DNA of 35,790 nucleotides from a virus: positions 1-35,790 of IMG/VR virus record IMGVR_UViG_3300021341_000070; one strand, given 5' to 3'. Below, piece after piece: positions 2,287 through 28,955 of this stretch. Under the pieces are notes generated by a model. That model ran no database searches and was not told where the DNA came from. It worked only from the letters and a program-made list of their open reading frames with translations. Each line of letters opens with the position of its first letter. Position 1 is the first letter of the stretch. A program made the position numbers and the translations under genes.

Positions 2287-2306
2287 AATATGCGTCTTTT
2301 ACTTTA

Positions 2307-2374: not shown

Positions 2375-2391
2375 AAGAAAAATTCTACACA

Positions 2392-3285
2392 ATGATTAAG
2401 AAAATAGCATTTATTGGAGTAACGGGTAATTTGGCACCTTTTACTTACAAAGAGTTGATTAAAGAGGGCATTCATATTAAGGCCCTGGTTAGAAATCGTG
2501 AGAAGGTCAATCAACTAACCGATTTCCCATCCGAGATTGAAATTATTGAAGGAGATTTGAGTAATCTTGATCGTTTGAGGACATTAGTGGATGGCGTTGA
2601 TGCCATCTTTTTAAATCTATCAACTAAAGATGCCAAGGCAACGTTTCAGCCTGAAATTGACGGTGTCAAAAATGTAATAACCGTTGCCAAAGAGAAGAGT
2701 ATCGGTCGAATCTTTCATGTTTCAGCGGTAACGGCTGCATTTCCAGAATTCGCTCAGGGTGCAGACTTCTACCCTAACACAATTAGACAAAAGGGGTATC
2801 GTCTTTTGAAAGAGTCTGGTATTCCTTGTACTTTCTTTCATTGCTCCTGGATTATGGACACTCTTGAATTTGCCATGAGAAAAGGTGACAGCCTTCAAGC
2901 TTTTAAACCTATTCATTATCCAATGTACTGGCTAGCTGGTAAAGACCTTGGGCGCATGGTTGCCAACGCGGTTCTTAAATCTGACCATGAACAGACCAAG
3001 GACTACATTATGCAAGGTAAGGAGGCTATTTCTTTTGAAGATGCGCTTACACGATACGCTGCCACTCATTCCCCAAAACTAAAAGTTCAAATGGCTCCAA
3101 TTTGGTTACTCAAGATAATAGGGCTTTTTGATAAAGAAGCGCGTTTTGCCTCACAACTAGGATCCTTTTTCTCCAACTTTAAAGAAGAATTCAGAGCAGA
3201 ACAAACTTGGAAAGAGCTCGGCGAGCCAGTTCACAGCATTGAAAACTTTATGCTAGAAACACCTACTGTGACTAACAACAACTAA
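2392..3285 (+). CDS. NAD(P)-binding Rossmann oxidoreductase, NmrA/SDR-like
   Basis: This 297-aa protein begins with a beta-strand and the dinucleotide-binding motif GVTGNLAPF (residues 9-17), a variant of the GxxGxxG found in atypical short-chain dehydrogenases. It continues with ALVRNREK, EGDLSN and VDAIFLNLS, the typical NmrA/NAD(P)H-binding pattern for quinone or aldehyde reductase-like proteins. No Tyr-x-x-x-Lys pair is clearly placed, so catalysis or a sensor-only role is unresolved. It is divergent from the HxlR gene, which presumably controls it. It is not a phage structural gene; it looks like stress-response cargo carried by the element. Confidence 0.88.
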   Translation: MIKKIAFIGVTGNLAPFTYKELIKEGIHIKALVRNREKVNQLTDFPSEIEIIEGDLSNLDRLRTLVDGVDAIFLNLSTKDAKATFQPEIDGVKNVITVAKEKSIGRIFHVSAVTAAFPEFAQGADFYPNTIRQKGYRLLKESGIPCTFFHCSWIMDTLEFAMRKGDSLQAFKPIHYPMYWLAGKDLGRMVANAVLKSDHEQTKDYIMQGKEAISFEDALTRYAATHSPKLKVQMAPIWLLKIIGLFDKEARFASQLGSFFSNFKEEFRAEQTWKELGEPVHSIENFMLETPTVTNNN

Positions 3286-14014: not shown

Positions 14015-15028
14015 TTATTTCCTTTGATAGAGACTATATAGTTGTTTTAAGATTGTCTGATCTAAATTCTTTACAAGGAATTTTTCTTGCGTTTTAGATT
14101 CTAAATCCTGTAGAAATTCTTGCGCTACACTTTTATGGTAGAATTCTCCTAGAAAAAGGTTGTAGGTATTTTGTCCCTCATCAATATATAAGTGTACTAC
14201 CATATTCCAATTTTGGAATTTATCTTTTATTTCCAATCCATGAAGAAGGGCGTTGTTATAGTCATTTAAGCCTGATGCAATTTGGATCGTATATTTAAAT
14301 GATCCTTCTTGTTGTACCCAGGTAAACGTTTCTTTTATAGGTCCTTGGCTTGTATCTAGAATTTGTTCGACATTGGACTTTGGATCAATTCCTATCATAT
14401 CAGGTGATTCATGTGCTGGCAGTTCCTCATTTTCTATATGCACAGATGCCTTCTCTTGAATTTCATCCATAGACAGTCTTTTGTCAGGCCCTTCGGCTAG
14501 CGAAGCTGAATAGGTAATAGTACAAATCATCACAAAGGATGAGACGAAGACGATTTTAAGGCTTATTTCAAGTTTTGCTATTCCATCAATGGCAAAAATA
14601 GGTTTTCCATAGATCCTCCTTAGAAAACGCTCAAGATAACACATAGCTAGTATCAGGGTAGAGATGAGGAACAAAACTAAACTTACTGTAGAAATCAGAT
14701 TAGATTGTATGAATATAGAGAGATCTATGTCAGGTCTTGATAGCAGATTTTTAAGTTCATTTCCGTGTTGACTTTTGATTACTTCCCATAGTATCCATAA
14801 TAGCGCAGGAATTATAGCATTTCCAATGATTGGTGTAACAACCGGCTTGGCAACCTCAACAAAATCCATTATCCCTTGTACTATTGAGTTCCACCAATCA
14901 CCAATCTTAGAATTATGTCGTTCTTCTTCAAGTTTGATCAACCTTTTGAAAAGCTCTTCTTGAGTATCTGAAGGCTTGACATATTTTTTCATGAGATCCT
15001 TGACCTCTTGCTCATTTATTGTTTTCAT
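14015..15028 (-). CDS. Three-TM membrane protein with C-terminal SPOR-like domain
   Basis: The 337-aa protein has an N-terminal cytoplasmic helical region (1-60) and hydrophobic segments near 62-84, 105-132 and 154-176. An acidic linker (177-240) leads to a C-terminal domain (about 244-323) of the form FKYTIQIASG...YNLFLGEFYHKSVAQEFLQDLE. That spacing is typical of SPOR (sporulation-related) domains, which bind denuded peptidoglycan glycans in the periplasm. It begins 3 bp after the sigma factor stop, so the pair is one operon. In this arrangement it may sense cell-wall state and control the sigma factor, or be its main effector; both are inference. Confidence 0.72.
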   Translation of the reverse strand: MKTINEQEVKDLMKKYVKPSDTQEELFKRLIKLEEERHNSKIGDWWNSIVQGIMDFVEVAKPVVTPIIGNAIIPALLWILWEVIKSQHGNELKNLLSRPDIDLSIFIQSNLISTVSLVLFLISTLILAMCYLERFLRRIYGKPIFAIDGIAKLEISLKIVFVSSFVMICTITYSASLAEGPDKRLSMDEIQEKASVHIENEELPAHESPDMIGIDPKSNVEQILDTSQGPIKETFTWVQQEGSFKYTIQIASGLNDYNNALLHGLEIKDKFQNWNMVVHLYIDEGQNTYNLFLGEFYHKSVAQEFLQDLESKTQEKFLVKNLDQTILKQLYSLYQRK

Positions 15029-15031
15029 ACA

Positions 15032-15631
15032 TTATTTACCTTTTGTCCATTCAGTATCAATACCATTTTCTTTAAGCCAATTCCTTAAATGGACCCTGAT
15101 TCGATGAATATGACTTCTAACAGTACTTAACTTCATTTCTGTTCTTCCGTTAGTTAGATCCCGCATCCTTATGGCGACATCTAAATCGCTTAGTCCATAT
15201 ATAAAAACTAATTGGTAAATGATTTGCTTTTCTTCACTAAGTTGATTTACCCCATCTAATATCAGACTAGCCAACTCTTTGCCTTGTAATTCTAAGACAG
15301 GGTTTGAACTTGACTTCTTTCTCTGCAGTGGAATTAATGAGTCACTTTGAAAGCTCCCTTTTCTTTTTGAAGAGACTAAAGATTTATGATAATTGGAGAG
15401 AATATTACGTGCCGTAGCTTCAGCAAAGGTTGTAACCTTAGCCTTTCCTCGAAAATCCTTTACAACTGCCCGAGCAGTAGCCTCGAGAGCTTCTTCTCTG
15501 GTGTAGAAGGCTGATTTAGCCACTAGAGGAAATTTCCCATAGACCTTGTAGACAATTTCTCGGATTTCTTGCTTGATCTTCTCATACTCTTCATGGCTTA
15601 TGTCAGGATATAGTTTTCCAGAGTATTCCAT
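15032..15631 (-). CDS. RNA polymerase sigma factor, ECF/sigma-70-like
   Basis: At 199 aa this is the size of ECF sigma factors. The N-terminal half (EATARAVVKDFRGKAKVTTF, with AEATARNILSNYHKS following) matches region 2 with its DNA-melting helix. The C-terminal half (ILDGVNQLSEEKQIIYQLVF and MKLSTVRSHIHRIRVHLRNW) matches region 4 with its HTH. It is followed 3 bp later by the SPOR-tailed membrane gene. It would redirect RNA polymerase, perhaps in response to envelope signals. Its AT-rich composition separates it from the phage structural genes. Confidence 0.85.
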   Translation of the reverse strand: MEYSGKLYPDISHEEYEKIKQEIREIVYKVYGKFPLVAKSAFYTREEALEATARAVVKDFRGKAKVTTFAEATARNILSNYHKSLVSSKRKGSFQSDSLIPLQRKKSSSNPVLELQGKELASLILDGVNQLSEEKQIIYQLVFIYGLSDLDVAIRMRDLTNGRTEMKLSTVRSHIHRIRVHLRNWLKENGIDTEWTKGK

Positions 15632-17353: not shown

Positions 17354-17392
17354 AGTGCCTCTCCAATGATTAATTTCAGTTGGAGGGGCACT
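17354..17392. terminator. Bidirectional hairpin between convergent small genes
   Basis: AGTGCCTCTCCAA (17354-17366) and TTGGAGGGGCACT (17380-17392) form a 13-base stem with one G-T pair and a 13-base loop, filling the gap between the 66-aa and 83-aa frames. Confidence 0.65.
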
Positions 17393-17644
17393 TCAATGGA
17401 AATGAATCTGAATAGCATCCCAAATCACTCCTCCAGCAATCAGAAGCCCAATTGCAAAGGCCATATAGACAATGTGTTTGATAACCCAATAAATAGGGTG
17501 CTCAGGGTAATAGGATGGTATCACAGGATCCCCACAGCTCTGGCAGTAGCAATAGTCAAAGTCCTTGCCCTCCTGGACTGGAGATTCGTATTTATCCCAT
17601 TCTTCAGCTATGAGGTGATCGTCTAGAGTGGTTAAATTTTCCAT
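17393..17644 (-). CDS. Small Cys-containing protein with one TM segment, 83 aa
   Basis: The N-terminal half (MENLTTLDDHLIAEEWDKYE onward) is acidic and contains CYCQSCGD, a possible half zinc-ribbon with paired cysteines around residues 32-37. The C-terminal half (WVIKHIVYMAFAIGLLIAGG) is a membrane segment ending in a His-rich tail. It is the last small gene in the minus-strand series downstream of the primase, between two hairpins. Function is unknown; a membrane-bound accessory factor is likely. Confidence 0.6.
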   Translation of the reverse strand: MENLTTLDDHLIAEEWDKYESPVQEGKDFDYCYCQSCGDPVIPSYYPEHPIYWVIKHIVYMAFAIGLLIAGGVIWDAIQIHFH

Positions 17645-17670
17645 CGTATATGGATTTGAATGTGAAAAAC

Positions 17671-17700
17671 GCTGAGCCTCCCTCTCACAAAAGGCTCAGC
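17671..17700 (-). terminator. Rho-independent terminator after the 42-aa gene
   Basis: GCTGAGCC and GGCTCAGC (17671-17678, 17693-17700) form an eight-base stem. On the minus strand it is followed by GTTTTTC. It ends the small-gene transcript 25 bp after the 42-aa gene stop. Confidence 0.75.
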
Positions 17701-17724
17701 AAATACGCTCAAACATGGTTCCTC

Positions 17725-17853
17725 TTATTCTTCTAATAAACTCTCCCCAGCAAGCCGATCAACATAGTACTGGAACTCCTCCAGGTTAAGGCGTAAACTG
17801 TACAGCCGGCGACCGAGCCAGCTCAATAAGTGGTATTTCATCTTGGCTATCAT
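17725..17853 (-). CDS. Small protein, 42 aa
   Basis: The frame runs MIAKMKYHLLSWLGRRLYSL onward to LLEE and a TAA stop. It is basic at the N-terminus and acidic at the C-terminus, probably an amphipathic helix. It starts 20 bp after the 45-aa gene, reads in the same direction and ends 25 bp before a clear terminator, which supports it as a real gene despite its size. An in-frame ATG at 17841 is an alternative start. No function is known. Confidence 0.5.
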   Translation of the reverse strand: MIAKMKYHLLSWLGRRLYSLRLNLEEFQYYVDRLAGESLLEE

Positions 17854-17873
17854 AATGCAATATTGTGATGTTA

Positions 17874-18011
17874 TTAAATGCTGTTTTTCTTTGCCTGACG
17901 CTGGGATCTCAGCTGGAGCCAGCGGAGGCGTGACCAGGTGATGGCGCCGCCCAGAAGGCTCATCAGGACCCCGTAGGTGATGAAGAGGATTATGTCTAGA
18001 AATGGTGTCAT
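17874..18011 (-). CDS. Small single-pass membrane protein, 45 aa
   Basis: The frame encodes MTPFLDIILFITYGVLMSLL, a hydrophobic helix, followed by a short loop and a strongly basic tail (RLRWLQLRSQRQAKKNSI), the profile of an N-out/C-in single-pass peptide. It lies 25 bp downstream of a terminator hairpin and 20 bp upstream of the 42-aa gene. Phage-encoded membrane peptides of this form include lysis regulators and superinfection factors; which applies is unknown. Confidence 0.5.
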   Translation of the reverse strand: MTPFLDIILFITYGVLMSLLGGAITWSRLRWLQLRSQRQAKKNSI

Positions 18012-18029
18012 ACGCGTAAATTTGTTTTG

Positions 18030-18059
18030 GAAAAGAGCAGCCCTGAGGGGAAGGGCTGC
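18030..18059 (-). terminator. Hairpin terminator after the 97-aa gene
   Basis: GCAGCCCT (18037-18044) and AGGGCTGC (18052-18059) pair exactly. On the minus strand the stem is followed by TCTTTT. It ends the primase-side transcript before the two very small genes. Confidence 0.7.
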
Positions 18060-18089
18060 GAGTAGAAAACCATAAACCGGTGTAGTATA

Positions 18090-18383
18090 TCAGTTGGGGA
18101 ATTTCGTTGAGCCAAACAATTGTCCCTGTTGAGACCGCGATTTGACTTGACTATTGCTCACCATATCTTTCAGCTGAGTAATAGTCAATCCCCGCTCTTC
18201 TGCAGACTCCATGAGCTCTCGAAGCTCCAGTATGATGAGGTAGCGTTTGTTAGCTTCATAGGCGCTGAGTTTCTTCTGCTGCACTTGCTTGGCGTAGACG
18301 GCCCAGCGCATGGTCAGCTCACGCTTGAGTTCTTTGATAAAATCACTGGTCTTTAGAGTTATATCTCTGCGGTTCATTTTCAT
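18090..18383 (-). CDS. Hypothetical helical protein, 97 aa
   Basis: A basic helical protein (MKMNRRDITLKTSDFIKELK onward) with a long amphipathic middle (AYEANKRYLIILELRELMES). It starts in an ATGA overlap with the Cys-rich gene before it, so translation is coupled. It ends about 30 bp before a terminator. It probably belongs to the replication operon headed by the primase-helicase. No family is recognised. Confidence 0.6.
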   Translation of the reverse strand: MKMNRRDITLKTSDFIKELKRELTMRWAVYAKQVQQKKLSAYEANKRYLIILELRELMESAEERGLTITQLKDMVSNSQVKSRSQQGQLFGSTKFPN

Positions 18384-18565
18384 GATGTAGCAGTTTTGGT
18401 GGCCCAGGAAGCCAGTTCTTCCACTTCTAGATCACTGCAAGCCTGCACACAGTCATCACAGCAGTTGCAAGTCCTGGAATCATCTTCTTGAGCAGGACAA
18501 GGGTGCTCTGCTGTAGCTGGACTTTCATTGCAGCCCTTGCAAAGTGTATCATTTGATTTTTTCAT
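18380..18565 (-). CDS. Cys-rich small protein, 61 aa
   Basis: The sequence contains CKGCNES, HPCPAQ and CNCCDDCVQAC: eight cysteines in 45 residues plus one His, suggesting one or two small metal-binding knuckles. It starts 17 bp after the primase-helicase stop and overlaps the next gene by four bases. It may be a small zinc-binding replication or transcription accessory protein. Acidic C-terminus EVEELASWATKTATS. Function is unknown. Confidence 0.6.
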   Translation of the reverse strand: MKKSNDTLCKGCNESPATAEHPCPAQEDDSRTCNCCDDCVQACSDLEVEELASWATKTATS

Positions 18566-18582
18566 TTTGATGGTTTTAAGAT

Positions 18583-21500
18583 TTAATAAGGTAGTTCTGG
18601 TTTCCTCAGGTCATCATCGGAGTTGATCGGTTGCTTGGCCATGGTGCCAGCATCAAAATCACTGTTAGCCAATAGGAAATACTCCTTGCCACTGCTCTTG
18701 ATCCGCCGGTCCTTACCGGTCGCGGTTGGGTTGAATTCCAACTGGGCATATTTGGTGTATAGCAGGAGGTGTTCCCTGAATTTCTTGGCATCGCAGTATT
18801 TGCGCTCACTGGGGTAATGCTCCAGGAACTTCATGTACAGGTAATTGCGTTCGCAGCGCTGATTGAGGAAGACGCCGGCTGGACTACCGGTGTGATCCGG
18901 CTCCTGATCATAGACCAAACTGGCCCAGTCCAGGAATTTTTCGCCCATCTTCTGGCGCATGCGGCGGCGCTCAATGTCTTGCTCGGGTATCTTGTATTTG
19001 AGGCCGTACTTCAGGTAGACCTGAATGCAGGTGGCGATCCAGTTGTAGAATAGATTCCATTGGTTGTTGTCCCACTCGTGGAAGAGCTGGTATCCGAATT
19101 CATCTCCAACCGTTCGGTATTCGTTGTAGTAGTCACTAAAGGCGATGGTGTATTGGCGACGCTTGAAGCTATTACCCTCGCCATTCAATGCATGGTTAGT
19201 GGTGATGATGAATTTTCGAGGAGGAATCTTGGAACGGCGCTCCCCTTTTGGATTGATGACCAAGCCCGTCGTGATCTGCGAGAAGAGCCATTCGAATGGG
19301 AAGTTGACGCGCACGTCGTCGAATAAAACAATGTGAGTCCGTTCATCCACCAACTCATAGATATGGTTGTCATCCTCGATATTCTTCTTCTTGCCATCAA
19401 TTACCTCGGTGGGTACCAGGTGCTCAAATTGCTTGGCCCAGATACTCTTTCCGGATCCGCCTTGACTTTTCCCCACTTCACTCTCAATACCATCCATGCA
19501 CACCACTGCCTTCATATTCCCATAGTCCAGATAGTCATGCATCACATAGCCGGCCGCGATCATCTTGGTGACAAAGTGGGCACGATGTAACTTAACATCC
19601 TTGTCCGTGAAGGGCTCTGGTTTTTTCTTCTGGGTATAGAGTTTTTGGCCATCTTCTTCTACCAGCTGCTGCGCCTTTTTCCAATGGAACATGCTGGTTC
19701 TATTGTAGAAGTTGGCCATATCGCATTGCTTGGCCGCATCGGTGTATTCCAGCTTCCAATTTTTATCTACCAAGCTCACCTCTATCATAGGCTTTCCGAT
19801 ATAGGTTGGCTCAAAGTCGATGATCTTATTGGCCCAGACATACTTAGGTAAATCGCTCAAGGGCCGCTCTGTGATCTCATCCTTGGTGATCTTCCAGTAC
19901 TTGTTCTTGAAGAACAAGTACATCGAGTTCTTTTCGCTCTCCATGAAAGGCAGCTGCCTTTCGTACATATCATTGAGCTTATCTGGACCCAAATATTGCG
20001 AACCTCCTTTCAACAGCAGATCGAGCACCTTCTTCTCTTCGATCTCCTCCGTGAAGTCGATTACATACTTGCGTATTTTTCTTGGTGTGGTCTCTTTTAC
20101 CACCTTTCCCTGAACGGAGATGAAGCGATACTTGTCCGCGTCATATTCGAACAAACCAAAGCCCCGGTTGCGTAGAAAGTATCGACAGTTGGTGTACTGA
20201 AATTTCCAACTGTAGCGCACTCGCCCACTACTATCCTCTCTAGCTTCCTTTTCCCAATACTGTTCGTGTGGCAATAGCTTCTGAGATAGTTCGAACTTAT
20301 CCTCCTCTTCGTTGTAGCGCCATTTCAGTTGACCTAAGCGAAATTCGTGGAGCTTCTTCAGTTTATCTTTATTATGCTCCATGAAAGCCGGATTGCTATG
20401 CAGCTTCCAGAATTCCTTAATCTTATAGTCGCTGAGTTCTGTGATCTTATAGATGTTCACATACTTCCCCTGGCCATCACGACTGACTCTAGCTGTATCA
20501 AAGTCTTCTTTCAGCTCTCCTTCTTTATCTTTCAGCTCTCTCACTAGCACATCATCGATACCCTTATGGACGGGGTCTTTGCCATGGGCGAAGTAGATAT
20601 TTAGGTAGATGCCAGAGTTGCTATAGGCGTAGAAGTAGGTCCTGAAACGGGAGACGGCTTTAAAGAAGGTACGTGGCCGCTGGTCAGCTGCTTTCCCATT
20701 CTTTACGCTGATATCCTGCCAATCCGAATCCAGTACAAAGACCACATTCACAATGCTGCAGCGCTTGATCAACTGCTCGAAATGATAGGGCATCTCATTG
20801 CTATGTGCGAAGTTGTTGATGCCCATTACCCCTACTGCCGGCAGGCCATGCAAGGCCATCTTATCCGCTTTCTTCTCCCCTTCACAGATGTACAGCGTCT
20901 CCAGGATCACCCCCTGCTTATAGGATTTCAGGATCTCATTCGGGATCCACAAATGAGAACCACTGCCATAAGGACTTTTATACTTGACCGGGTTACCTTT
21001 CTTATCCAGATGTAAACTGGGATTGGCCCAGCGCACGCGAATCAATTGTTGTTTCCGCGTCGGGCTGAGGTTGAAACTGATCGGCTTTCCATTTAGATCC
21101 AGGTAGTGCAGTACCATATCATCCCCAGGAACTACATTCCATAGCCGATCTACGGATGCAGCCTGATATCGATCCGATTCAATCTTAGTAGTAGAGGTTT
21201 TAGCCATCATCCACTTCTGTGACTTGACTGGAATGCCACTCTCCCGCAACTGGCGATCGCGAAACTTCTCCTTTCGATTCTTCTTCTTGGTTTTGGGAGC
21301 AGTAGGTTTCTCTTCCTCAACTGGGATATTGTATCGATCGGCCAAATATATGAGCGCCTCTACATAGGTTTTCCCCATCACATCCGTCAAGAACTTCACT
21401 GCATCCTTTCCAGACTTCTGGCAGCCGGAAAAGCACTTGTAGACCGACTTACCTGGCGTCACGGTAAACTTGTGATTGTGGCAATAGGGACAATCCCCTA

Positions 21501-21618
21501 CCAGACTACTTCCACTCTTCTTTAGGGCAGTAAAATCTTGTATCACCTGATCCAGTACGGCGGCTTCTTTAATCTTCTCAGCTATTTCCTTCGGGATGTA
21601 ATTCTTTGTGTCGAGCAT
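18583..21618 (-). CDS. Primase-helicase: zinc finger, TOPRIM-like and SF3-type ATPase
   Basis: The 1011-aa protein starts MLDTKNYIPKEIAEKIKEAA. Residues 43-66 form a CHC2-type zinc finger (C43, C46, C62, C66). A TOPRIM-like core follows: YICEGEKKADKM near 243 holds the catalytic Glu and VFVLDSDW near 294 the acidic pair. The C-terminal half has a Walker A GGSGKS near 720, a Walker B IVLFDD near 763 and the sensor-type KFIITTNHAL of superfamily 3 helicases. It would prime and unwind phage DNA at the fork. It heads the replication transcript with three small genes behind it. Fusion of all three activities in one chain is typical of phage and plasmid replication proteins. Confidence 0.88.
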   Translation of the reverse strand: MLDTKNYIPKEIAEKIKEAAVLDQVIQDFTALKKSGSSLVGDCPYCHNHKFTVTPGKSVYKCFSGCQKSGKDAVKFLTDVMGKTYVEALIYLADRYNIPVEEEKPTAPKTKKKNRKEKFRDRQLRESGIPVKSQKWMMAKTSTTKIESDRYQAASVDRLWNVVPGDDMVLHYLDLNGKPISFNLSPTRKQQLIRVRWANPSLHLDKKGNPVKYKSPYGSGSHLWIPNEILKSYKQGVILETLYICEGEKKADKMALHGLPAVGVMGINNFAHSNEMPYHFEQLIKRCSIVNVVFVLDSDWQDISVKNGKAADQRPRTFFKAVSRFRTYFYAYSNSGIYLNIYFAHGKDPVHKGIDDVLVRELKDKEGELKEDFDTARVSRDGQGKYVNIYKITELSDYKIKEFWKLHSNPAFMEHNKDKLKKLHEFRLGQLKWRYNEEEDKFELSQKLLPHEQYWEKEAREDSSGRVRYSWKFQYTNCRYFLRNRGFGLFEYDADKYRFISVQGKVVKETTPRKIRKYVIDFTEEIEEKKVLDLLLKGGSQYLGPDKLNDMYERQLPFMESEKNSMYLFFKNKYWKITKDEITERPLSDLPKYVWANKIIDFEPTYIGKPMIEVSLVDKNWKLEYTDAAKQCDMANFYNRTSMFHWKKAQQLVEEDGQKLYTQKKKPEPFTDKDVKLHRAHFVTKMIAAGYVMHDYLDYGNMKAVVCMDGIESEVGKSQGGSGKSIWAKQFEHLVPTEVIDGKKKNIEDDNHIYELVDERTHIVLFDDVRVNFPFEWLFSQITTGLVINPKGERRSKIPPRKFIITTNHALNGEGNSFKRRQYTIAFSDYYNEYRTVGDEFGYQLFHEWDNNQWNLFYNWIATCIQVYLKYGLKYKIPEQDIERRRMRQKMGEKFLDWASLVYDQEPDHTGSPAGVFLNQRCERNYLYMKFLEHYPSERKYCDAKKFREHLLLYTKYAQLEFNPTATGKDRRIKSSGKEYFLLANSDFDAGTMAKQPINSDDDLRKPELPY

Positions 21619-21802
21619 ATACGGGTTATTGTCATTCCATGGGAATAAATCAGGGAAAATGAGAAGTGGGCGAAGGAAACCCCATCTCGATCGATGGTGT
21701 GGAATTTCACTTCGCTCAATTCTGTCTAAGCCTTTTTTGGTGTTGGTATGTGTAGCTATCTAAAGTCTAAGTTGTGCTTGCCTATGGCGGTATGGTGTAG
21801 TA

Positions 21803-23119
21803 CTATGCCTCTTGTATGTCTAGTTCTTGCGTGGTTTCATTTTCGTTGATAGTCCACCCTATCTCTTCTAGTTCTGCACGCAGTCGACGGTATAAACAGT
21901 GCTGATAATGACGCGATTCTTCGGTCTTGTATTCCAAGGATCTCTTGTAAGCCGTTTTCATCCAAGACTTGAAATAGCGGGCATCCACCAGCTTGGTACC
22001 GTCTGAACCTACGTTCAACGTACGTTGAACGACGTTGAACGCCTCTTTCTCGTTTTTCTGCTGCCAGGGGAGGGGAGCGTTGAGATCATCGCGCTCCGCC
22101 TCTTCTGGGCTGTGAGGATAGGGGGACTTCATGGCCGTCCCTTTCTGCCGAAAACCAATCTGACGGCGGCTTTCATCAGCGGGAGTAGTAGGGGTAGATT
22201 GATTGGGGGGAATCTGGGTAAAGTTCTGTTGGCCACCTTGCTGCAATAGTTGCATCAGCTGAGCCATGTTTATATTCGTGGGAATGCTTGTAGCTGGAGT
22301 AGGGGAGGGGAGCGTTTGGCCTTCGGTCTTGGCTTGGCCTTTAATACCATTGTCATAGATTCCAATCAATACTAAACAGAATAGGCAGAGTACTTCGCCA
22401 AACCCTGCAAAGCCCATCGCCCATTGGCCATTCTCAGCTGTCTTTGCTTCGTGATCTTTGCGGATTTGATCATTTTCGGCTTGTGTCCGGGACAAGTCTT
22501 CCGATCGGCGTGCCTCGAGGCCTTCGATTAACCCCTGCTCCTTCATGATCATCTTCCGAGCATCGCCTACGATCTTGCCTTTCCATGTTGTTTTTTCGTA
22601 GTTCGCTATGTTGACTCTATGGATGGCCACTTGGTCATCATAATTCGCATTAATACTATCTACGTTGATATACTCAGCAGCCAAGGGTTTGTAGTGCTTA
22701 CGGAATTCCTGATTGATTACTGGGGCACCTTGAATGGAGAGATTGATGCTAAACGCCATTACAGCGATGAAGCCGAGTACTTTGACTATGAAAAGAGCAA
22801 GCCTGGGGCCGCGATCGCTAAACACGCCCGCCTGGATATCATCAACGGCCCCTTTACCGAGAAAGAACTTCGGCGCCTCTACTAGTATGACGACTAGTAT
22901 AGTGATCGCCCAAGGTAGAATACCTAAACCCAGTGATTCTTTGGTGCGCAGGTAGACGTGGCCACCTTCGGTCAATGCCGAAAAGACAGCAGCCAAAGGG
23001 TAGAGCACAAAGGCAAATACTACCCATAGCCAGTAGTTCTGAGCAATGAAGTTATCTTGATACTGCATTTTATCCTGCGCCCGTTGCGTTTCCTTAGTAA
23101 TTATGGTACTTTTGTCCAT
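21803..23119 (-). CDS. Multi-pass membrane protein with long cytoplasmic tail, 438 aa
   Basis: Hydrophobic segments lie near 28-48, 69-86, 107-128 and 243-263. A charged coiled-coil region (about 150-235) sits between the third and fourth, and a Pro/Gln-rich linker (275-325) leads to a basic helical C-terminal domain (FKSWMKTAYKRSLEYKTEES region). No transporter motif is seen. It lies between the switch and the primase on the primase strand. A role anchoring replication or DNA to the membrane, or superinfection exclusion, is possible but unproven. A 20-bp perfect palindrome lies inside its coding sequence (22012-22031). Confidence 0.65.
   Translation of the reverse strand: MDKSTIITKETQRAQDKMQYQDNFIAQNYWLWVVFAFVLYPLAAVFSALTEGGHVYLRTKESLGLGILPWAITILVVILVEAPKFFLGKGAVDDIQAGVFSDRGPRLALFIVKVLGFIAVMAFSINLSIQGAPVINQEFRKHYKPLAAEYINVDSINANYDDQVAIHRVNIANYEKTTWKGKIVGDARKMIMKEQGLIEGLEARRSEDLSRTQAENDQIRKDHEAKTAENGQWAMGFAGFGEVLCLFCLVLIGIYDNGIKGQAKTEGQTLPSPTPATSIPTNINMAQLMQLLQQGGQQNFTQIPPNQSTPTTPADESRRQIGFRQKGTAMKSPYPHSPEEAERDDLNAPLPWQQKNEKEAFNVVQRTLNVGSDGTKLVDARYFKSWMKTAYKRSLEYKTEESRHYQHCLYRRLRAELEEIGWTINENETTQELDIQEA
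22012..22040. repeat. 20-bp perfect palindrome plus half-site inside the membrane-protein gene
   Basis: CGTTCAACGTACGTTGAACG (22012-22031) is its own reverse complement and is followed immediately by another half-site, CGTTGAACG (22032-22040). Such a site within a coding region resembles an operator for a dimeric regulator or a recognition site for a plasmid-type protein. Confidence 0.75.
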
Positions 23120-23198
23120 GAACTTAATTTTACAAAGGCCTCTTATCGTGAAGGGTAGGGGCCTTTTTCTATTTGGGTAATTATTATTTATACAGGGC

Positions 23199-23228
23199 TA
23201 AAAAATCCCCCAGGGCCGAGGCCCCAGA
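23199..23228 (-). terminator. GC-rich hairpin with T-run
   Basis: On the minus strand GGGCC and GGCCC around 23213-23224 form a short GC stem, with GGGGATTTTTT following. It sits between the switch gene and the membrane-protein gene and could limit read-through. A further AAAGGCC/GGCCTTT pair lies at about 23133-23167. Confidence 0.45.
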
Positions 23229-23339
23229 GGTATGTGTAGAACCCCAAAAAACCAACAGGGAAAAGGAGGGGAGGGAGCTACCCAGTCCCCTCGGTGTTTA
23301 AGCTTTATTATGCTCAAATGGAAAATAGCCTTCGTTAAA

Positions 23340-23366
23340 GAAACCGGAGCACCGTTGTACTCCGGC
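23340..23366 (-). terminator. Terminator after the 87-aa switch gene
   Basis: CCGGAG (23344-23349) and CTCCGG (23360-23365) form a stem extended inward by further pairs. On the minus strand TTTCTTT follows. It lies 15 bp after the 87-aa gene. Confidence 0.7.
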
Positions 23367-23380
23367 CTAACCCAAACTCT

Positions 23381-23644
23381 CTAAATACAATTGCTCGTTT
23401 GTTGAGCGATTATGATCTCCAGCTGGCCAGCCAGCTGCTGTTGTCTGTTCGAGTCATTCCTCAAAATTTCAATGGTACTTTTCAATACCGCTTCTACATT
23501 TTCTTCGCTGCCGTTGTCTCCCCGTAGCATCATAGCAATGCTCTGCCGAGACTTTTCGTGCTTCTCTGCCAGCTCATTGATGGCTCCGTGTGGAAGCTGA
23601 TCGGTAAGACTAGGAGAGATGTTCTGAAGGAGGTCTTTTATCAT
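23381..23644 (-). CDS. Small HTH-type switch regulator (Cro-like), 87 aa
   Basis: INELAEKHEKSRQSIAMMLR (about 23-42) is a helix-turn-helix-like segment, followed by a pattern (ENVEAVLKSTIEILRND) common in small Bacteroidota HTH proteins. It is divergent from an XRE-type repressor with 117 bp between them, the standard layout of a lysis-lysogeny switch. A TAGTTTTG -7 element lies on the minus strand at 23698-23691, 46 bp upstream of the ATG. It is likely the early (lytic) regulator; assignment of which side is lytic is inference. Confidence 0.6.
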   Translation of the reverse strand: MIKDLLQNISPSLTDQLPHGAINELAEKHEKSRQSIAMMLRGDNGSEENVEAVLKSTIEILRNDSNRQQQLAGQLEIIIAQQTSNCI

Positions 23645-23761
23645 TGTAGTTTTCTATTAACTTTATGTGAAGTTGACACAATGTTAATTACAAAACTATA
23701 CAAATGCAACAATTTTGATGTTTTTTTGACTCAAAATTGAATAAAACACCTGTTTGCCTGT
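23645..23761. promoter_or_regulatory. Divergent switch promoter region
   Basis: This 117-bp AT-rich gap separates two HTH genes. The minus-strand -7 element TAGTTTTG (23698-23691) is clear. TGACTCAAAATTGA (23727-23740) and TTGACACAATGTTAA (23673-23687) are candidate operator halves. The arrangement matches a repressor/Cro control region. Confidence 0.55.
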
Positions 23762-24151
23762 ATGCAACTGAGTCAAAACCTTAAGCAGATAAGGAAAAAA
23801 TGGAGATTGAATCGAGATGAGTTTGCTAGCATATTCGGTATAGCTCCTGGCACAATGCTGACTTACGAAAATGGAAGAAGTGAACCTAAAGTGAAATTCC
23901 TGCTTAGATTATATGAAGTGACGGGGATACCCTTTATTGAAATCTGTACTCGCCCGCTAGATGATGCTGAGATTCCTGAAAGTCCAGGGACATTTACTTT
24001 AGCAGAGGCAAAAAAAGGGAATTCAGTACCTCTTACTCAGGACCCGCTTTATAACAATCATATGATGGTGAAAAAGGTTAGAGATATGGAAGGGGAGATG
24101 GCTGAGTTAAGAAAGAAAATAACAGATATAGAGAAGGAGAAAGGCAAATAA
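23762..24151 (+). CDS. XRE-family repressor-like protein with C-terminal coiled coil, 129 aa
   Basis: Residues 4-60 form a classic HTH_3 domain: LSQNLKQIRKKWRLNRDEFA, then SIFGIAPGTMLTYENGRSEP, with the E-x-G-R-x-x-P end typical of XRE proteins. The C-terminus (about 98-129, MMVKKVRDMEGEMAELRKKI) is a coiled coil suited to dimerisation. It is divergent from the 87-aa gene and precedes the NACHT operon on the same strand by 94 bp, so it may repress the lytic side while being co-expressed with, or controlling, the defence cargo. Confidence 0.8.
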   Translation: MQLSQNLKQIRKKWRLNRDEFASIFGIAPGTMLTYENGRSEPKVKFLLRLYEVTGIPFIEICTRPLDDAEIPESPGTFTLAEAKKGNSVPLTQDPLYNNHMMVKKVRDMEGEMAELRKKITDIEKEKGK

Positions 24152-24245
24152 GATTTATAGATAGTAGCGGCTACTCTAAGTATAAACAAAACAATTAGCT
24201 GATCGTTGTGAAAATTGCATGATTGGAATTAACACTTGATTCAAC

Positions 24246-24785
24246 ATGCTTAACCTATATACCCTAATGGACCACTACCCTTATTCAGAGAAGATGGTGG
24301 AAGACCTTGATGCCACCTTGGACGTGCTCAAGAAAAATGCTGATATACATCTCCATCCTGATTTCATTTATCCGCCCTTGGGGATTGAACGTGACGAGTA
24401 TGCGCGTTGTGCTGATATCAAGGACGCCATCCTTGCCCTTGGCAAACGCGGCTATGTACATTTGAATGAGCATGGTGATCCTAAGATTCGTCCGGAGGGT
24501 CTTGCTTTTTTGGAGGCAGGTGGGTTCACTCGGCAGCGCAAGGCTTTCTATCTAGATATAAAATCTAAGGAGGTGGATCGATTATCCAAAAAGGAACTAC
24601 AGGAATTGCAGATTGAAGATTTGAAGAAGCGCTTGGCGAGTGCGGAGAAGCAGTTGAAGTTGCAAAGTGCTTTTTGGGAGACGTCGACAACAAGAAATAG
24701 ATGGCAGGTATTTTTTATTGCGATTTCGGTGATTGCTTTGTTGTTGTCAATGGCGTCAACGATTGTGGTTCTGATTTATAAATAA
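24246..24785 (+). CDS. Membrane-anchored coiled-coil protein, partner of the NACHT gene, 179 aa
   Basis: The N-terminal part (about 40-100) is a small mixed domain of winged-helix appearance (IKDAILALGKRGYVHLNEHG, with PKIRPEGLAFLEAGG after it), a pattern seen in DUF- and YjcQ-like modules. A coiled coil (about 110-142) follows, and a C-terminal hydrophobic helix (WQVFFIAISVIALLLSMAST, about 152-177) would anchor it facing the cytoplasm. It ends 29 bp before the NACHT gene and reads in the same direction, so the two are almost certainly one operon. It could be the sensor, inhibitor or membrane effector for the NACHT protein. Confidence 0.7.
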   Translation: MLNLYTLMDHYPYSEKMVEDLDATLDVLKKNADIHLHPDFIYPPLGIERDEYARCADIKDAILALGKRGYVHLNEHGDPKIRPEGLAFLEAGGFTRQRKAFYLDIKSKEVDRLSKKELQELQIEDLKKRLASAEKQLKLQSAFWETSTTRNRWQVFFIAISVIALLLSMASTIVVLIYK

Positions 24786-24814
24786 CCTGAGTTTTACTAC
24801 AAAATAAATCTAAT

Positions 24815-27637
24815 ATGGGGATTCGTTCCAGGTGGGCATTAAAGGATAATTTGCAGATTCTTTGTGATCTGATAGGTTGGAAGATCGACACCTACAAGAC
24901 TAGTGACTTGGACAAGTATTCAGTATATCATGGTCCAGCAGGAAGTGATATTCCAATTTCTCTTTTAACATTGGCTGAAAGGGCTGATACTCCACAGTTA
25001 GTTTTAAATCATGTGGTGGCGATTGTCCATCTTGTAGTATTTGCCAATGCCCTGGACCGCTACAAAATCGACTTGAATGTCTCGGGCCAAACTAAAACTC
25101 AGTTTCAAGATAAGTTTCAAGAACTGATTCAAAAAGGAGAGATATTAGACTTTAAGGAGAAAGACCTAGAGGAGTCTCAATTATATAAAGATTACTATTT
25201 CCTTTTTTATGACCTGTTGAATGAACTTGACCTTTCAAGTGGGCAAAAAGTTAGAGTTTATAACTATCACAATGATAACTATGGGGCCAAATTTTGGAGG
25301 CTCATAACAGAGTATAAAGGCGGCCTGTCCAGGAAAATTGAAGGATTTCTACAAGGGGAGCAATTACAGGCAAGAATTCGAAACCTGAGCAGGGAAAGGT
25401 ATCTGGTTGATTTAAAGAATCAATACACAGAAATCACACTAAACGATGAAAAAGGACTAACCTTAAATCATATATATCAAGAGCCGAACTACAGCATCTT
25501 CAAAAAATGCCTCCTAGATGAAGCACATAAGAATATAGCCAAGGATAAAGTTTTTGTTAATCCAAAACTAATCCATCTAGCCAATAATGTGCATTCATTT
25601 GTCTTGAGCTGGCTAAGGTCCAGCACTAAACTTAGCAAACTTAAAAATGCTAAGGCAAGGATACTCCTGCTATATGGTTATCCTGGTCAAGGGAAAACCT
25701 CTTTTTGTAAGCGCTTGGTTTATGATTTATTGCGTGCCCAGGACTTCGCTAAACCCTTGTTTATGCTTAGGTTACGGGAATTAAGTGAACCAATAAAACT
25801 TAAATCGGAGGTTTTAGCTACTATCAGCCATCACTTGAACGAGGAATATCAATTGGAGACGAGCAAAAATAGCCTCAAAAGTTCTCTCCTTATCCTAGAT
25901 GGTTTGGACGAACTCCTCATGAAAAACAAGCTCCAGAACAATGATATCGAGGATATCTTTAGAGCCATTGTTGATGAAGTAGAGCGCTATAAAGACCTAA
26001 AGATCATTATCACCTCAAGATATGGTTACCTCAATTTAGAGCGATTGCCAGCCAATGATCTTTTGATAGCTAGATTGGATGAATTTGAATTAGAACAGCA
26101 GTTAAACTGGCTGAAGGCTTATCAAACCTTCTACCCCAAAGTTTGGCTCACTAAGGAAAAAATTACAGAAATCAGGGAGAATGGTGGGTTCATTGATGAA
26201 TTGATTCGCCAGCCAATCTTACTCCATATGATTGCCTCGCTTGATCAAGATTTCGTAGAAGGAGTAGGGAATAGGGCTGGTGTTTATTCCGCACTTTTTG
26301 ATCAGATCACCAACCCCGTCCGCTGGAAGGATGCGCAAATTAAGATCTTGAAGGGCTTAGATACTGAGGATCTTAGAGGAACCTTAAGAGAAGCGGCCTT
26401 CCATATCTTTCAATCGGGGGAGGGGTACATCCATAAAACAGGCTTGGAAAAATTACCCGCAGTTCTGGAACTTAGGGAGAAATTGCAAAAGCAAGACAGC
26501 TATTTTCGAGAGGCTTTAAAAATGATGATGGTAGCCTTCTACTTTCAAGAGCGGCCAAAAAGCCGACGATTGAGGAGTGATGATGAAGATTATGACTATG
26601 CAATAGAGTTCCTTCATAAGTCGCTGCAAGAATATTTAACAGCAGAGTACATCTGGGAAACTGTAAAGGGAGAATTGATCGACAAGAATAGAAAAAAGAA
26701 GTATATCAAGGAATCTGAGGCTGAAATACTAGAATTCTTACAGGAAATCTTTGGTAAACAACCTATGTCGCTTGAAGTTGCTAATTATTTGGTGGAGATT
26801 ATTGAGAATGATAAAAATGATGAAGAAAAGCAAGAACTAGCGAAGCGATTGGAGTATGTAATTGACTATGGTTTACAGAAGCAATTCGTCTATACCTTCG
26901 ATGCAGAGAAACAAGATTCGGTAATGGATCTCAGCAATTGGATTTTTTATGGATATTGGACGATCTACGCTCATTTGAAAGAGAAAATTGATTTATTTGG
27001 GGAAGGGAAGGAAGAGAGAAGAGGTAGTATTGTGTCAATTCTGCAATTCTTCCAGTACAAGAAAACAGCATTGAAGCCTTTGCGATTGGTTGGCGCCGAC
27101 CTCCGCGTCGCCGACCTCCGCGTCGCCTACCTCCGCGACGCCTACCTCAGCGGCGCCTACCTCAGCGTCGCCAACCTCCGCGGCGCCGACCTCCGCGTTG
27201 CCGACCTCAGCGGCGCCAACCTCAGCGTCGCCAACCTCAGCGGCGCCGACCTCCGCGGCGGCGACCTCCGCGGCGCCGACCTCAGCCACGCCTACCTCAG
27301 CCGCGCCGACCTCAGCGGCGCCGACCTCAGCCACGCCAACCTCAGCGGCGCCGACCTCAGCCACGCCTACCTCAGCGGCGCCTACCTCCGCGACGCCGAC
27401 CTCAGCGGCGCCGACCTCAACGTCGCCGATCTCAGCGGCGCCTACCTCCGCCGCGCCGACCTCAGCGGCGCCGACCTCCGCGGCGCCGATCTCAGCCGCG
27501 CCGACCTCCGCCGCGCCGACCTCAACGGTGTTAGGAATGCGACTATCAAACAACTGGCTTCTGCTAGGTCTTTAGAGGGAGCAAGAGGGTTACCTAGTAA
27601 ATGGATGGTAAAGCTTAGAAAGCTAATGGGAAGTTAG
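24815..27637 (+). CDS. NACHT-domain STAND NTPase with C-terminal pentapeptide repeats, 940 aa
   Basis: The N-terminal 260 residues have no recognised domain and may carry the effector or a protein-protein interface. The NACHT core starts with Walker A GYPGQGKTS (about 288-296), Walker B LLILDGLDEL (about 358-367) with the NACHT-type D-G-L-D-E, and sensor KIIITSRYGY (near 394-403). The following helical region includes FLHKSLQEYLTAEYIW, a conserved STAND feature. Residues about 757-905 are pentapeptide repeats A(D/N/Y)L(S/R)x forming a right-handed beta-helix, in place of the leucine-rich or TPR sensors found elsewhere. Bacterial NACHT proteins are established anti-phage sensors; this one's role in a prophage is inferred. 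Confidence 0.88.
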   Translation: MGIRSRWALKDNLQILCDLIGWKIDTYKTSDLDKYSVYHGPAGSDIPISLLTLAERADTPQLVLNHVVAIVHLVVFANALDRYKIDLNVSGQTKTQFQDKFQELIQKGEILDFKEKDLEESQLYKDYYFLFYDLLNELDLSSGQKVRVYNYHNDNYGAKFWRLITEYKGGLSRKIEGFLQGEQLQARIRNLSRERYLVDLKNQYTEITLNDEKGLTLNHIYQEPNYSIFKKCLLDEAHKNIAKDKVFVNPKLIHLANNVHSFVLSWLRSSTKLSKLKNAKARILLLYGYPGQGKTSFCKRLVYDLLRAQDFAKPLFMLRLRELSEPIKLKSEVLATISHHLNEEYQLETSKNSLKSSLLILDGLDELLMKNKLQNNDIEDIFRAIVDEVERYKDLKIIITSRYGYLNLERLPANDLLIARLDEFELEQQLNWLKAYQTFYPKVWLTKEKITEIRENGGFIDELIRQPILLHMIASLDQDFVEGVGNRAGVYSALFDQITNPVRWKDAQIKILKGLDTEDLRGTLREAAFHIFQSGEGYIHKTGLEKLPAVLELREKLQKQDSYFREALKMMMVAFYFQERPKSRRLRSDDEDYDYAIEFLHKSLQEYLTAEYIWETVKGELIDKNRKKKYIKESEAEILEFLQEIFGKQPMSLEVANYLVEIIENDKNDEEKQELAKRLEYVIDYGLQKQFVYTFDAEKQDSVMDLSNWIFYGYWTIYAHLKEKIDLFGEGKEERRGSIVSILQFFQYKKTALKPLRLVGADLRVADLRVAYLRDAYLSGAYLSVANLRGADLRVADLSGANLSVANLSGADLRGGDLRGADLSHAYLSRADLSGADLSHANLSGADLSHAYLSGAYLRDADLSGADLNVADLSGAYLRRADLSGADLRGADLSRADLRRADLNGVRNATIKQLASARSLEGARGLPSKWMVKLRKLMGS
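27092..27530 (+). repeat. 15-nt GC-rich tandem repeat encoding the pentapeptides
   Basis: About 29 units of a 15-nt consensus GCCGACCTCAGCGGC (phase arbitrary) follow in tandem. Variation is confined mainly to the second and fourth codons of each unit, and nearly every codon ends in C. Composition is far more GC-rich than the rest of the gene. The near-identity at DNA level indicates recent or ongoing expansion. Frames on both strands stay open as a by-product. Confidence 0.9.
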
Positions 27638-27664
27638 CTTGGGAGATAGATTGAACGAAAAGTA

Positions 27665-27745
27665 GAAAGCGGGTCGAACGTTTTAGCACAGACTTCCTAG
27701 GAAAAGTAGTTCGTTGCACGATCAGGCCCGTGATACCCCGCTTTC
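27665..27745. repeat. Inverted repeat between convergent NACHT and antirepressor genes
   Basis: GAAAGCGGG (27665-27673) and CCCGCTTTC (27737-27745) are exact complements separated by 63 bp. A direct repeat TAGCTTGGGA also flanks the region (27635-27644 and 27758-27767), once over each gene's end. The structure may be a shared terminator or a relic of insertion. Confidence 0.5.
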
Positions 27746-27756
27746 GATTTCTTATG

Positions 27757-28311
27757 CTAGCTTGGGAAGGGAAGGGCGGTCTGGCCAGTAAAGCGTTTCT
27801 CTCTAACTTCAGCAAGCGATAAGTCAATCTTCTTCAGATCAGACTTTAATTTTTTCAATTCGTCATTCTTCTCTGCAATCTCATCAACGGTATCCGACTT
27901 CTTCATGATCAAGTCCAATTCATACTTGTTCTCCTCTTGGAATACCTCAATCAACTTATACATGGAAAGCATCTCTTGACGAAGCCAAGCCATGAACGCA
28001 TATTGCTTGTCTACTGAGCCTTCTCTACGTTTGTTTTGAGAGATACTAGTAAGCCAAGCAAATAGGTCAAACATAGGCAAACATCTCATTTCATATTGCT
28101 TCCCATCAGCTCCAGTTGTATAGTCTAGACTATATAACTGACTAAAGATTTTGTGCTTTTTTAGCCAGTTATCTTGAGTAGGGAAGTCAACACCAATGAT
28201 TTGACATACTGTTTTAACAGGCACCATTCGATGGCCATCAGTGATAGGACAAGAAATAGAAGTGCCATGATAGTCGAGGTCGACTATCGCAAGATCTTTT
28301 ACTACATTCAT
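27757..28311 (-). CDS. P22-type antirepressor (phage antirepressor N-terminal domain)
   Basis: Residues 5-120 match the P22_AR_N pattern: MVPVKTVCQIIGVDFPTQDN, a Leu/Lys stretch, and MRCLPMFDLFAWLTSISQNK. A C-terminal coiled coil (about 135-170, ELDLIMKKSDTVDEIAEKND) replaces the usual Ant domain, so it is a short version at 184 aa. Antirepressors bind and inactivate prophage repressors. It converges on the NACHT gene and lies upstream of nothing on its strand before the switch, so it may act on the nearby XRE repressor. The 28.4-kb repeat site lies 130 bp upstream of its start. Confidence 0.78.
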   Translation of the reverse strand: MNVVKDLAIVDLDYHGTSISCPITDGHRMVPVKTVCQIIGVDFPTQDNWLKKHKIFSQLYSLDYTTGADGKQYEMRCLPMFDLFAWLTSISQNKRREGSVDKQYAFMAWLRQEMLSMYKLIEVFQEENKYELDLIMKKSDTVDEIAEKNDELKKLKSDLKKIDLSLAEVREKRFTGQTALPFPS

Positions 28312-28390
28312 GTAGTTGCGATTTAAATTAACGTATCAATTTTAAAGGGAGTGAAACAAATGTTAGTAATAAAAATCACATTGTCAAATA

Positions 28391-28458
28391 GTGGACTTTT
28401 TAATTTGTAATTGATTAATTATCAATAGTGCTTTTCTTGATAGTCCAAAAGTCCACTC
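28391..28458. repeat. Second copy of the GTGGACT repeat, inverted pair around AT-rich core
   Basis: GTGGACTTTT (28391-28400) and ATAGTCCAAAAGTCCACTC (28440-28458) face each other across a 39-bp AT-rich core containing TTGATTAATTATCAATA. The 19-mer is identical to that at 13051-13069. It is upstream of the antirepressor and downstream of the nuclease gene. Confidence 0.8.
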
Positions 28459-28532: not shown

Positions 28533-28955
28533 TTAGTACCTTTCAGCAAAATCATGATCTAGTAAGAATTGACTCAAGTTAATCCAGTATTCATTCTCCT
28601 GAAAATAGATCTCGGCAATGAGTCGACCGTACTTCCCCCTTTCATCCTGATTGGTCACCGCTATGATGTTCTTGTTTAATATCAATCCTTCCACTATATC
28701 CCTGACCTGTAAGCCTTCCGGCCGTTCTTTCCCTCTGATCTCCGGCGTATCGACTCTCGCTAGTCGGATAACATCTTCATATTGCAGTCCAAATCCCAAG
28801 TCAAAGTTTAGGGTAAAAGTATCTCCATCGTATACATCGGTTACTGTAGCAGAGTAAGTGTAGGGATAGTAAATGGAGTCGATACTAGTGGTGTCTTGCG
28901 TGAAAGCAAGAGTATGAGACAACAGCAAAGCAAGGGATATTAGTAATCTTTTCAT
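28533..28955 (-). CDS. Secreted thermonuclease-like (SNase) protein
   Basis: The first 19 residues (MKRLLISLALLLSHTLAFT) form a signal peptide. The body matches the staphylococcal nuclease fold: VTDVYDGDTFTLNFD, then RLARVDTPEIRGKERPEG with the active-site Arg and Glu, and DERGKYGRLIAEIYF with the second catalytic Arg. At 140 aa it is a compact single domain. It would cut DNA or RNA outside the cytoplasm with calcium. It ends the tail module 19 bp after the tape-measure gene stop, so it may be late-expressed; host-DNA scavenging or exclusion of competing DNA are possibilities. Confidence 0.88.
   Translation of the reverse strand: MKRLLISLALLLSHTLAFTQDTTSIDSIYYPYTYSATVTDVYDGDTFTLNFDLGFGLQYEDVIRLARVDTPEIRGKERPEGLQVRDIVEGLILNKNIIAVTNQDERGKYGRLIAEIYFQENEYWINLSQFLLDHDFAERY

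What the first reader, a model, noticed from the sequence alone, without database searches (positions are those of the whole stretch)
24246..27637. Two-gene prophage cargo: membrane-anchored coiled-coil protein plus NACHT-pentapeptide NTPase
Seen: a 179-aa protein with an N-terminal winged-helix-like part, coiled coil and C-terminal TM helix, 29 bp before a 940-aa protein with an intact NACHT core (Walker A/B, DGLDE) and pentapeptide repeats, behind an XRE repressor. Established: bacterial NACHT and other STAND proteins are anti-phage sensors. Inferred: the operon is a defence system guarding the lysogen, with the membrane protein as effector or gatekeeper and the beta-helix of pentapeptides as sensor. 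The combination with a dedicated membrane partner is not one I recognise.
Basis: partly seen in the sequence, partly recalled or inferred. Interest (0 to 1): 0.85.

Follow-up and report, generated by a model that had tools for sequence, protein, structure and literature searches.

The report
Phage-borne NLR-like NACHT gene pair
A virus of Saprospiria-type bacteria carries, right behind its repressor gene, a bacterial relative of the animal NOD-like immune receptors together with a small membrane protein; it is probably a defence gene that a dormant virus uses to protect its host, but the membrane protein is not a conserved partner as first thought.

Summary
Both genes are real and anatomically as described: a 179-aa winged-helix/coiled-coil/C-terminal-TM protein (24246-24785) 29 bp before a 940-aa NACHT-pentapeptide protein (24815-27637), 94 bp behind an XRE repressor with a divergent Cro-like gene. 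The window is a viral record; its nearest known relative is a prophage of Flavilitoribacter (Saprospiria). In relatives the interval between repressor and tape measure holds the integrase plus a small cargo slot (empty in two, a membrane-anchored exonuclease in two); here it holds this pair and no integrase is found. The NACHT protein is an ordinary modular bacterial NLR: relatives in 8-9 of ~250-300 family/order genomes share the NACHT core and pentapeptide tail but swap the N-terminus (EAD11, trypsin, AlbA_2, NNH3, NNH5), and its model matches NOD2/NLRC4/NLRP3. The 'dedicated partner' idea fails: none of 15 related NACHT loci carries the small protein, and the two families occur in disjoint genomes. 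The small-protein family instead sits beside a Schlafen-AlbA_2 gene, near an EAD11 gene, near a histidine-kinase-like gene, or alone. Most likely: a lysogeny-expressed abortive-infection NLR, with the membrane protein an opportunistic tether or bystander. New member of a known kind; defence itself untested.

The parts
23381..23644 (-). 87-aa small protein in Cro position, divergent from the XRE gene (flanking, control region)
   Evidence: ORF; no family match; position matches the small ORF divergent from XRE in G694 and G696
23762..24151 (+). 129-aa XRE-family repressor-like protein (HTH_19), first gene of the presumed lysogenic transcript
   Evidence: Pfam HTH_19 E=4.4e-7; PHROG transcriptional regulators; homologues at the same map position in phage relatives G694 and G693
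24246..24785 (+). 179-aa winged-helix / coiled-coil / C-terminal TM protein
   Evidence: ORF; AF2 model with long helix 93-178; relatives in L043, L103, L037, L079, L080
24815..27637 (+). 940-aa NACHT-pentapeptide NTPase: helical N-terminal region (1-~210), NACHT core (282-406 and helical arm to ~725), pentapeptide beta-solenoid (759-903), C-terminal helix
   Evidence: Pfam, AF2 model, Foldseek to NOD2/NLRC4/NLRP3 and pentapeptide solenoids, orthologues
27092..27528 (+). 15-bp tandem array, 29 copies, coding for the pentapeptide repeats; third codon positions 97% G/C against 42% in the rest of the gene
   Evidence: TRF, unit list, GC3
27660..27750 (.). inverted repeat (arms 27660-27673 / 27737-27750) between the convergent NACHT and antirepressor genes; possible shared terminator (weak)
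   Evidence: fold z-score only -1.2
27757..28311 (-). 184-aa P22_AR_N antirepressor-like protein, convergent with the NACHT gene; phage backbone gene, not cargo
   Evidence: Pfam P22_AR_N E=6.9e-16; homologue next to the integrase and tape measure in relative G694

Best explanation
The pair is a cargo unit in the lysogeny (repressor-side) slot of a temperate phage of Saprospiria-type hosts. It is probably expressed with the repressor in the lysogen and silenced when the phage is induced (inferred). The 940-aa protein works like other bacterial NLRs (bNACHT/STAND): at rest it is a closed ADP-bound monomer; a phage-derived or phage-perturbed ligand met by the pentapeptide solenoid and helical arm opens it; the NACHT ring assembles and the N-terminal helical region is brought together as effector or adaptor, arresting or killing the infected cell before a competing phage matures. 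The 179-aa protein is a tail-anchored, cytosol-facing winged-helix adaptor; in this phage it could tether the NACHT ring to, or let it act on, the inner membrane, but this is not a conserved requirement of the NACHT family. Shown: gene anatomy, folds by prediction, slot position, modular relatives. Inferred: operon, defence, sensor, tether.
For: Intact NACHT motifs, NLR-like predicted fold with NOD2 as top PDB match (E=2e-13). Relatives have a constant NACHT core and pentapeptide tail with exchanged N-terminal domains typical of conflict systems: EAD11 (L071), trypsin plus a separate Trypco1 gene (L077), SLFN_AlbA_2 (L070), NNH3 (L069, L075), NNH5 (L072). Cargo position: in phage relatives the interval between XRE and tape measure carries the integrase alone (G003, G696) or an N-terminally TM-anchored DnaQ-type exonuclease plus integrase (G693, G694), so this is a variable cargo slot. 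Precedents: the S. aureus Tha system is expressed from the cI lysogeny transcript and reduced on induction (PMC11087260); bNACHT proteins with N-terminal effector, NACHT and C-terminal sensor defend E. coli against phages (PMC12169576).
Against: No direct evidence for defence, expression or toxicity. The N-terminal 210 residues match no effector family, only a weak profile resemblance to an NNH3-type region (E=0.0014 but probability 18%). The membrane protein is not conserved with the NACHT. Phage carriage of this NACHT clade looks very rare: no other viral contig with it was found (L110 is a primase/helicase-like false match), nor any in 50,697 phage records.
Confidence: 0.5

Rival explanations
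1. The NACHT protein is a stand-alone phage-defence NLR and the 179-aa protein is an independent moron (for example a membrane-bound regulator, superinfection-exclusion factor or partner of something else) that merely sits in the same cargo slot.
For: 0 of 15 related NACHT loci have a family member, although five positive-control loci score E<1e-60. NACHT relatives occur with other neighbours or alone. The small-protein family occurs alone in chromosomes (L045, L079, L080, L105) and beside unrelated genes.
Against: Same strand, 29-bp gap, no terminator-like site between them, and one other family member is likewise tightly paired (72 bp) with a cytosolic AlbA_2 protein on a mobile element.
Confidence: 0.33
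2. The pair has a role in the phage's own life cycle or host fitness rather than defence (for example lysogeny maintenance, a toxin that stabilises the prophage, or a membrane-bound regulator of the lysogeny switch using the winged helix as DNA binder).
For: Position behind the repressor; winged-helix fold is often DNA-binding; several relatives of the small protein are conserved orphans in chromosomes.
Against: The NACHT clade is sporadic and diversifies its N-terminus with conflict-type domains, which fits immunity better than housekeeping.
Confidence: 0.12
3. Decaying or non-functional cargo: an NLR gene captured from a host chromosome, having replaced the integrase, in a grounded element.
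For: No integrase homologue in the window although the five relatives that cover the site have one next to the tape measure; clade otherwise chromosomal.
Against: Both reading frames are intact with all NACHT motifs; structural phage genes are intact; the window misses a tail-gene stretch, so an integrase elsewhere cannot be excluded.
Confidence: 0.05

Closest known systems
bNACHT proteins (bacterial NLR-related anti-phage proteins, e.g. bNACHT25; PMC12169576)
   Same: N-terminal region, central NACHT module with intact Walker motifs, C-terminal presumed sensor; tripartite STAND layout
   Different: C-terminus is a pentapeptide solenoid rather than the NCH1 or SNaCT regions described there; N-terminus is a helical region without a recognised nuclease; encoded by a temperate phage in its lysogeny slot
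Modular STAND/EAD conflict systems of multicellular bacteria (Kaur et al. 2020 PMC7159879; 2021 PMC8195603)
   Same: Relatives of this NACHT carry EAD11, trypsin+Trypco1 and superstructure-forming pentapeptide repeats, the vocabulary of those systems
   Different: The window protein lacks EAD, Trypco or enzymatic N-terminus; the small neighbour is a winged-helix/TM protein not named there in the passages read
Tha/Ith of S. aureus prophages (PMC11087260)
   Same: Defence gene carried in the repressor-side lysogeny operon of a temperate phage
   Different: Tha is a HEPN RNase with an antisense inhibitor gene; here NACHT-pentapeptide plus a TM protein and no identified inhibitor
Lambda RexAB (own knowledge)
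   Same: Two genes behind cI, one cytosolic and one membrane protein
   Different: No sequence or fold relation claimed; RexB is multi-spanning, the 179-aa protein has a single C-terminal TM
Cyanobacterial NACHT-pentapeptide proteins on Nostoc/Scytonema plasmids (L002-L004)
   Same: NACHT core and pentapeptide array, ~27-29% identity over the core
   Different: Different, TM-like N-terminal region; no small upstream partner

Membership tests
bacterial NACHT/STAND (bNACHT) proteins | NACHT module with Walker A, Walker B (hhhhDGLDE) and downstream helical domains | tested here: met
   Pfam NACHT 35.5 bits over a 26.7 cut-off; motifs at 288, 358, ~400; NLR folds as top structural matches
bacterial NACHT/STAND (bNACHT) proteins | Tripartite layout: variable N-terminal effector/adaptor, NACHT, C-terminal repeat/sensor | tested here: met
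   Model and alignment show helical N-term, NACHT, pentapeptide solenoid; N-terminal domains exchanged among relatives
bacterial NACHT/STAND (bNACHT) proteins | Recognised effector domain at the N-terminus | tested here: inconclusive
   No Pfam family at E<=10 for residues 1-262; weak profile similarity to NNH3-bearing relatives. Some described bNACHT clades also lack a discernible effector
bacterial NACHT/STAND (bNACHT) proteins | Protection against phage dependent on the Walker A residue | not testable with these tools
   needs bench work
EAD/Trypco conflict systems | EAD or Trypco domain in the protein or neighbouring gene | tested here: not met
   None in the window pair; present in relatives L071 and L077
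PADLOC-listed defence systems (2023) | Match to a model of the system's proteins | tested here: not met
   Only weak ATPase-type partial matches (IetA, mad8; E 5e-5 to 3e-3) and none for the 179-aa protein
Obligate two-gene system (NACHT-pentapeptide + winged-helix/TM protein) | The two genes recur together | tested here: not met
   0 of 15 NACHT loci contain the small-protein family; 6 vs 8 of 248 genomes, no genome with both. Sample is one family/order and numbers are small
Prophage lysogeny-slot cargo | Gene lies between repressor and integrase/tape measure, same strand as repressor, variable among relatives | tested here: met
   Synteny with G001, G003, G693, G694, G696; integrase itself absent in the window
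Prophage lysogeny-slot cargo | Expressed from the repressor promoter in the lysogen | not testable with these tools
   No terminator-like site between the genes on the + strand; no transcript data

The most novel reading that the evidence does not exclude
The winged-helix/coiled-coil/tail-anchor proteins are a promiscuous membrane-adaptor family of Bacteroidota that brings different cytosolic conflict proteins (NACHT-pentapeptide here, Schlafen-AlbA_2 on the G698 element, EAD11 and histidine-kinase-like neighbours elsewhere) to the inner membrane, and this phage has assembled a membrane-tethered NLR from such parts.
Probability: 0.15. Interest if true: 0.65.

Novelty: new member of a known kind. 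Interest (0 to 1): 0.4.

Why it matters
If true, it adds an NLR-type sensor with a pentapeptide solenoid to the defence genes that temperate phages carry in their repressor operon, in a bacterial group (Saprospiria) rich in such receptors and with little phage-defence work that I know of. The exchange of N-terminal domains on one NACHT-pentapeptide core makes the sensor/effector split directly testable. The small membrane protein is a lead for a possible tether of bacterial NLRs, but one that the data so far do not tie to NACHT genes.

Tried and rejected
Dedicated-partner hypothesis: rejected at family level. Diversifying selection on the pentapeptide units: pairwise pN/pS is 2.8, but a neutral simulation with gene conversion and conserved Ala/Leu gives a ratio as high in 115 of 2262 runs, and for the free codons in 1015 of 2262, so no claim is made; the link of unit identity to GC3 excess over nine arrays is not significant (rho 0.35, p 0.36). 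Long ORFs overlapping the array on both strands (27035-27553 -, 27090-27575 +) are by-products of a stop-free 15-bp repeat. Searches with the 179-aa protein in viral contigs, plasmids and phages, and with the NACHT in viral and genome contigs by exact peptide patterns, found nothing; L012/L013 are distant NACHT proteins and L110 is a primase/helicase-like false match. Bacteroidota TAnnTTTG promoter scan: matches no more frequent than chance. Terminase searches served only to identify phage relatives and the host group. The two proteins were not modelled as a complex: only single chains could be predicted.

Full report
What is there. The window is a 35.8-kb IMG/VR viral record with no integration flanks visible. 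Both genes exist exactly as described: 24246-24785 (179 aa) and 24815-27637 (940 aa), same strand, 29 bp apart, 94 bp behind an XRE-type regulator (23762-24151) that faces a small Cro-like gene (23381-23644).

Small protein. It matches no family in Pfam above cut-off, PHROGs, PADLOC or NCBIfam. The AlphaFold model (five-sequence alignment, mean pLDDT 79.6) shows a winged-helix arrangement followed by one continuous helix from 93 to 178 that contains the coiled coil and the C-terminal hydrophobic segment. PDB matches are winged-helix/MarR folds but weak (E>=0.1). By topology inference it is tail-anchored with the winged helix in the cytosol.

Large protein. NACHT (Pfam E 1.1e-8), pentapeptide array (E 5.6e-45) and a helical N-terminal region with no family. 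Walker A GYPGQGKTS, Walker B LLILDGLDEL and the TSR motif are intact. The model (mean pLDDT 72, nine sequences) has a helical N-terminus, a NACHT/helical arm, and a regular solenoid; the best PDB matches are rabbit NOD2, NLRC4 and NLRP3 plus pentapeptide solenoids. It is therefore a bacterial NLR by sequence and by predicted fold. In the viral structure library the best match is one phage protein already named NLR-like (A0A8S5V3T3).

Host and phage. The terminase is 76% identical to that of a prophage of Flavilitoribacter nigricans (Saprospiria) and 55-66% to several viral contigs. Structural genes are collinear with these relatives. In the five relatives that cover the site the gene next to the tape measure on the repressor side is a tyrosine integrase (intact, Pfam-confirmed in G001, G003, G694 and G696; a fragment in G693; G695 has one too in a rearranged region). 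Between repressor and integrase there is nothing in G003 and G696, and a protein with an N-terminal TM segment and a DnaQ-type exonuclease domain in G693 and G694. In the window this interval holds the 179-aa/NACHT pair and no integrase homologue is detected anywhere in the record. The finding thus lies in a variable cargo slot of the lysogeny region, on the repressor strand, comparable to the place of Tha in S. aureus prophages (PMC11087260). The antirepressor gene 27757-28311 is backbone: it has a homologue in the same place in G694.

Relatives of the NACHT. HMMER-level searches found it in 9 of 299 genomes of the host's order and 8 of 248 of its family (the samples overlap). The NACHT core and pentapeptide tail are conserved, the N-terminus is exchanged: EAD11 (with a neighbouring Trypco1-like gene), trypsin with a Trypco1 gene, SLFN_AlbA_2, NNH3 twice, NNH5, and, in L068, the same unnamed helical region as in the window (27% identity there). 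This is the modular pattern described for bacterial conflict systems (PMC7159879, PMC8195603) and for bNACHT proteins (PMC12169576). No other viral contig with this clade was found.

Relatives of the small protein. Profile searches found members in 1 of 299 (order), 3 clear ones of 395 (class) and 6 of 248 (family; the last three weak) genomes. Contexts: 72 bp behind an AlbA_2/Schlafen-like gene on an element with integrase and replication genes (L103), near an EAD11 protein (L044), upstream of receiver and histidine-kinase-like genes (L104), and alone in ordinary chromosomal surroundings (L045, L079, L080, L105). A six-sequence profile run over every ORF of 15 NACHT loci gave no member (best E 0.4), while the five control loci scored 1e-61 or better (they are also in the profile) and the independent L104 scored 5e-8. 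In the family sample no genome had both (6 and 8 of 248; 0.2 expected by chance, so absence of overlap is not itself avoidance, but it excludes mutual dependence).

Mechanism. The best-supported reading is an NLR-type abortive-infection gene used by the prophage to guard its host: solenoid and arm sense, NACHT assembles, N-terminal helical region acts or recruits. That it is under repressor control and shut off on induction is inferred from position and the Tha precedent. The winged-helix/TM protein may tether or assist it in this phage, or be unrelated cargo; the data favour neither strongly, though they reject an obligate pair.

Pentapeptide array. 29 units with 97% G/C at third codon positions versus 42% in the rest of the gene, nearly all variation at the three residues other than the conserved Ala and Leu. 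This resembles the internally conserved repeats of fungal NLRs (PMC4986451), but a neutral gene-conversion simulation does not exclude chance, so I only record it.

Verdict. Observation confirmed; interpretation half right. A new member of the bacterial NLR kind in a known type of phage cargo slot, with an interesting but unproven neighbour.

Noticed in passing
window 17366-28400 region; G001, G003, G693, G694, G696 relatives: All five relatives that cover the site carry a tyrosine integrase next to the tape measure (intact in four, a fragment in G693); the window has none detectable. The phage may be grounded, use another way to persist, or the gene lies in the missing stretch.
   Followed up: partly
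L082 (G694) 19174-19926 and L090 (G693) 2221-2931: Related phages carry, in the same repressor-integrase slot, a protein with an N-terminal TM helix fused to a DnaQ-type (RNase_T) exonuclease: possibly another membrane-anchored lysogeny-slot defence gene.
   Followed up: partly
L103 5782-7371: SLFN_AlbA_2 protein followed 72 bp later by a winged-helix/coiled-coil/TM protein of the same family as the 179-aa protein, beside integrase and replication genes of an integrative element.
   Followed up: partly
window 27092-27528: Pentapeptide array with 15-bp units, third codon positions 97% G/C against 42% in the rest of the gene; near-clonal units with variation confined almost entirely to the residues other than Ala and Leu.
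   Followed up: yes
window 1912-3285: HxlR-type regulator and a divergent NmrA/NAD(P)-binding oxidoreductase gene inserted between tail and terminase genes: metabolic cargo absent from the relatives.
   Followed up: partly
window 14015-15631: Sigma-70 region 4-like protein followed by a 337-aa protein with two TM helices: looks like a phage-borne sigma/anti-sigma pair, absent from relatives.
   Followed up: no
window 28533-28955: Secreted staphylococcal-nuclease-like protein next to the tape measure.
   Followed up: no
window 21803-23119: 438-aa membrane protein with weak DUF4407 similarity before the DnaG-like primase; counterparts in similar position in G003, G693 and G696.
   Followed up: no
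L071 6182-9802, L077 4701-8118: NACHT-pentapeptide genes with an adjacent Trypco1-like small gene; L071 also has a second EAD11 gene with a TM segment directly downstream.
   Followed up: partly
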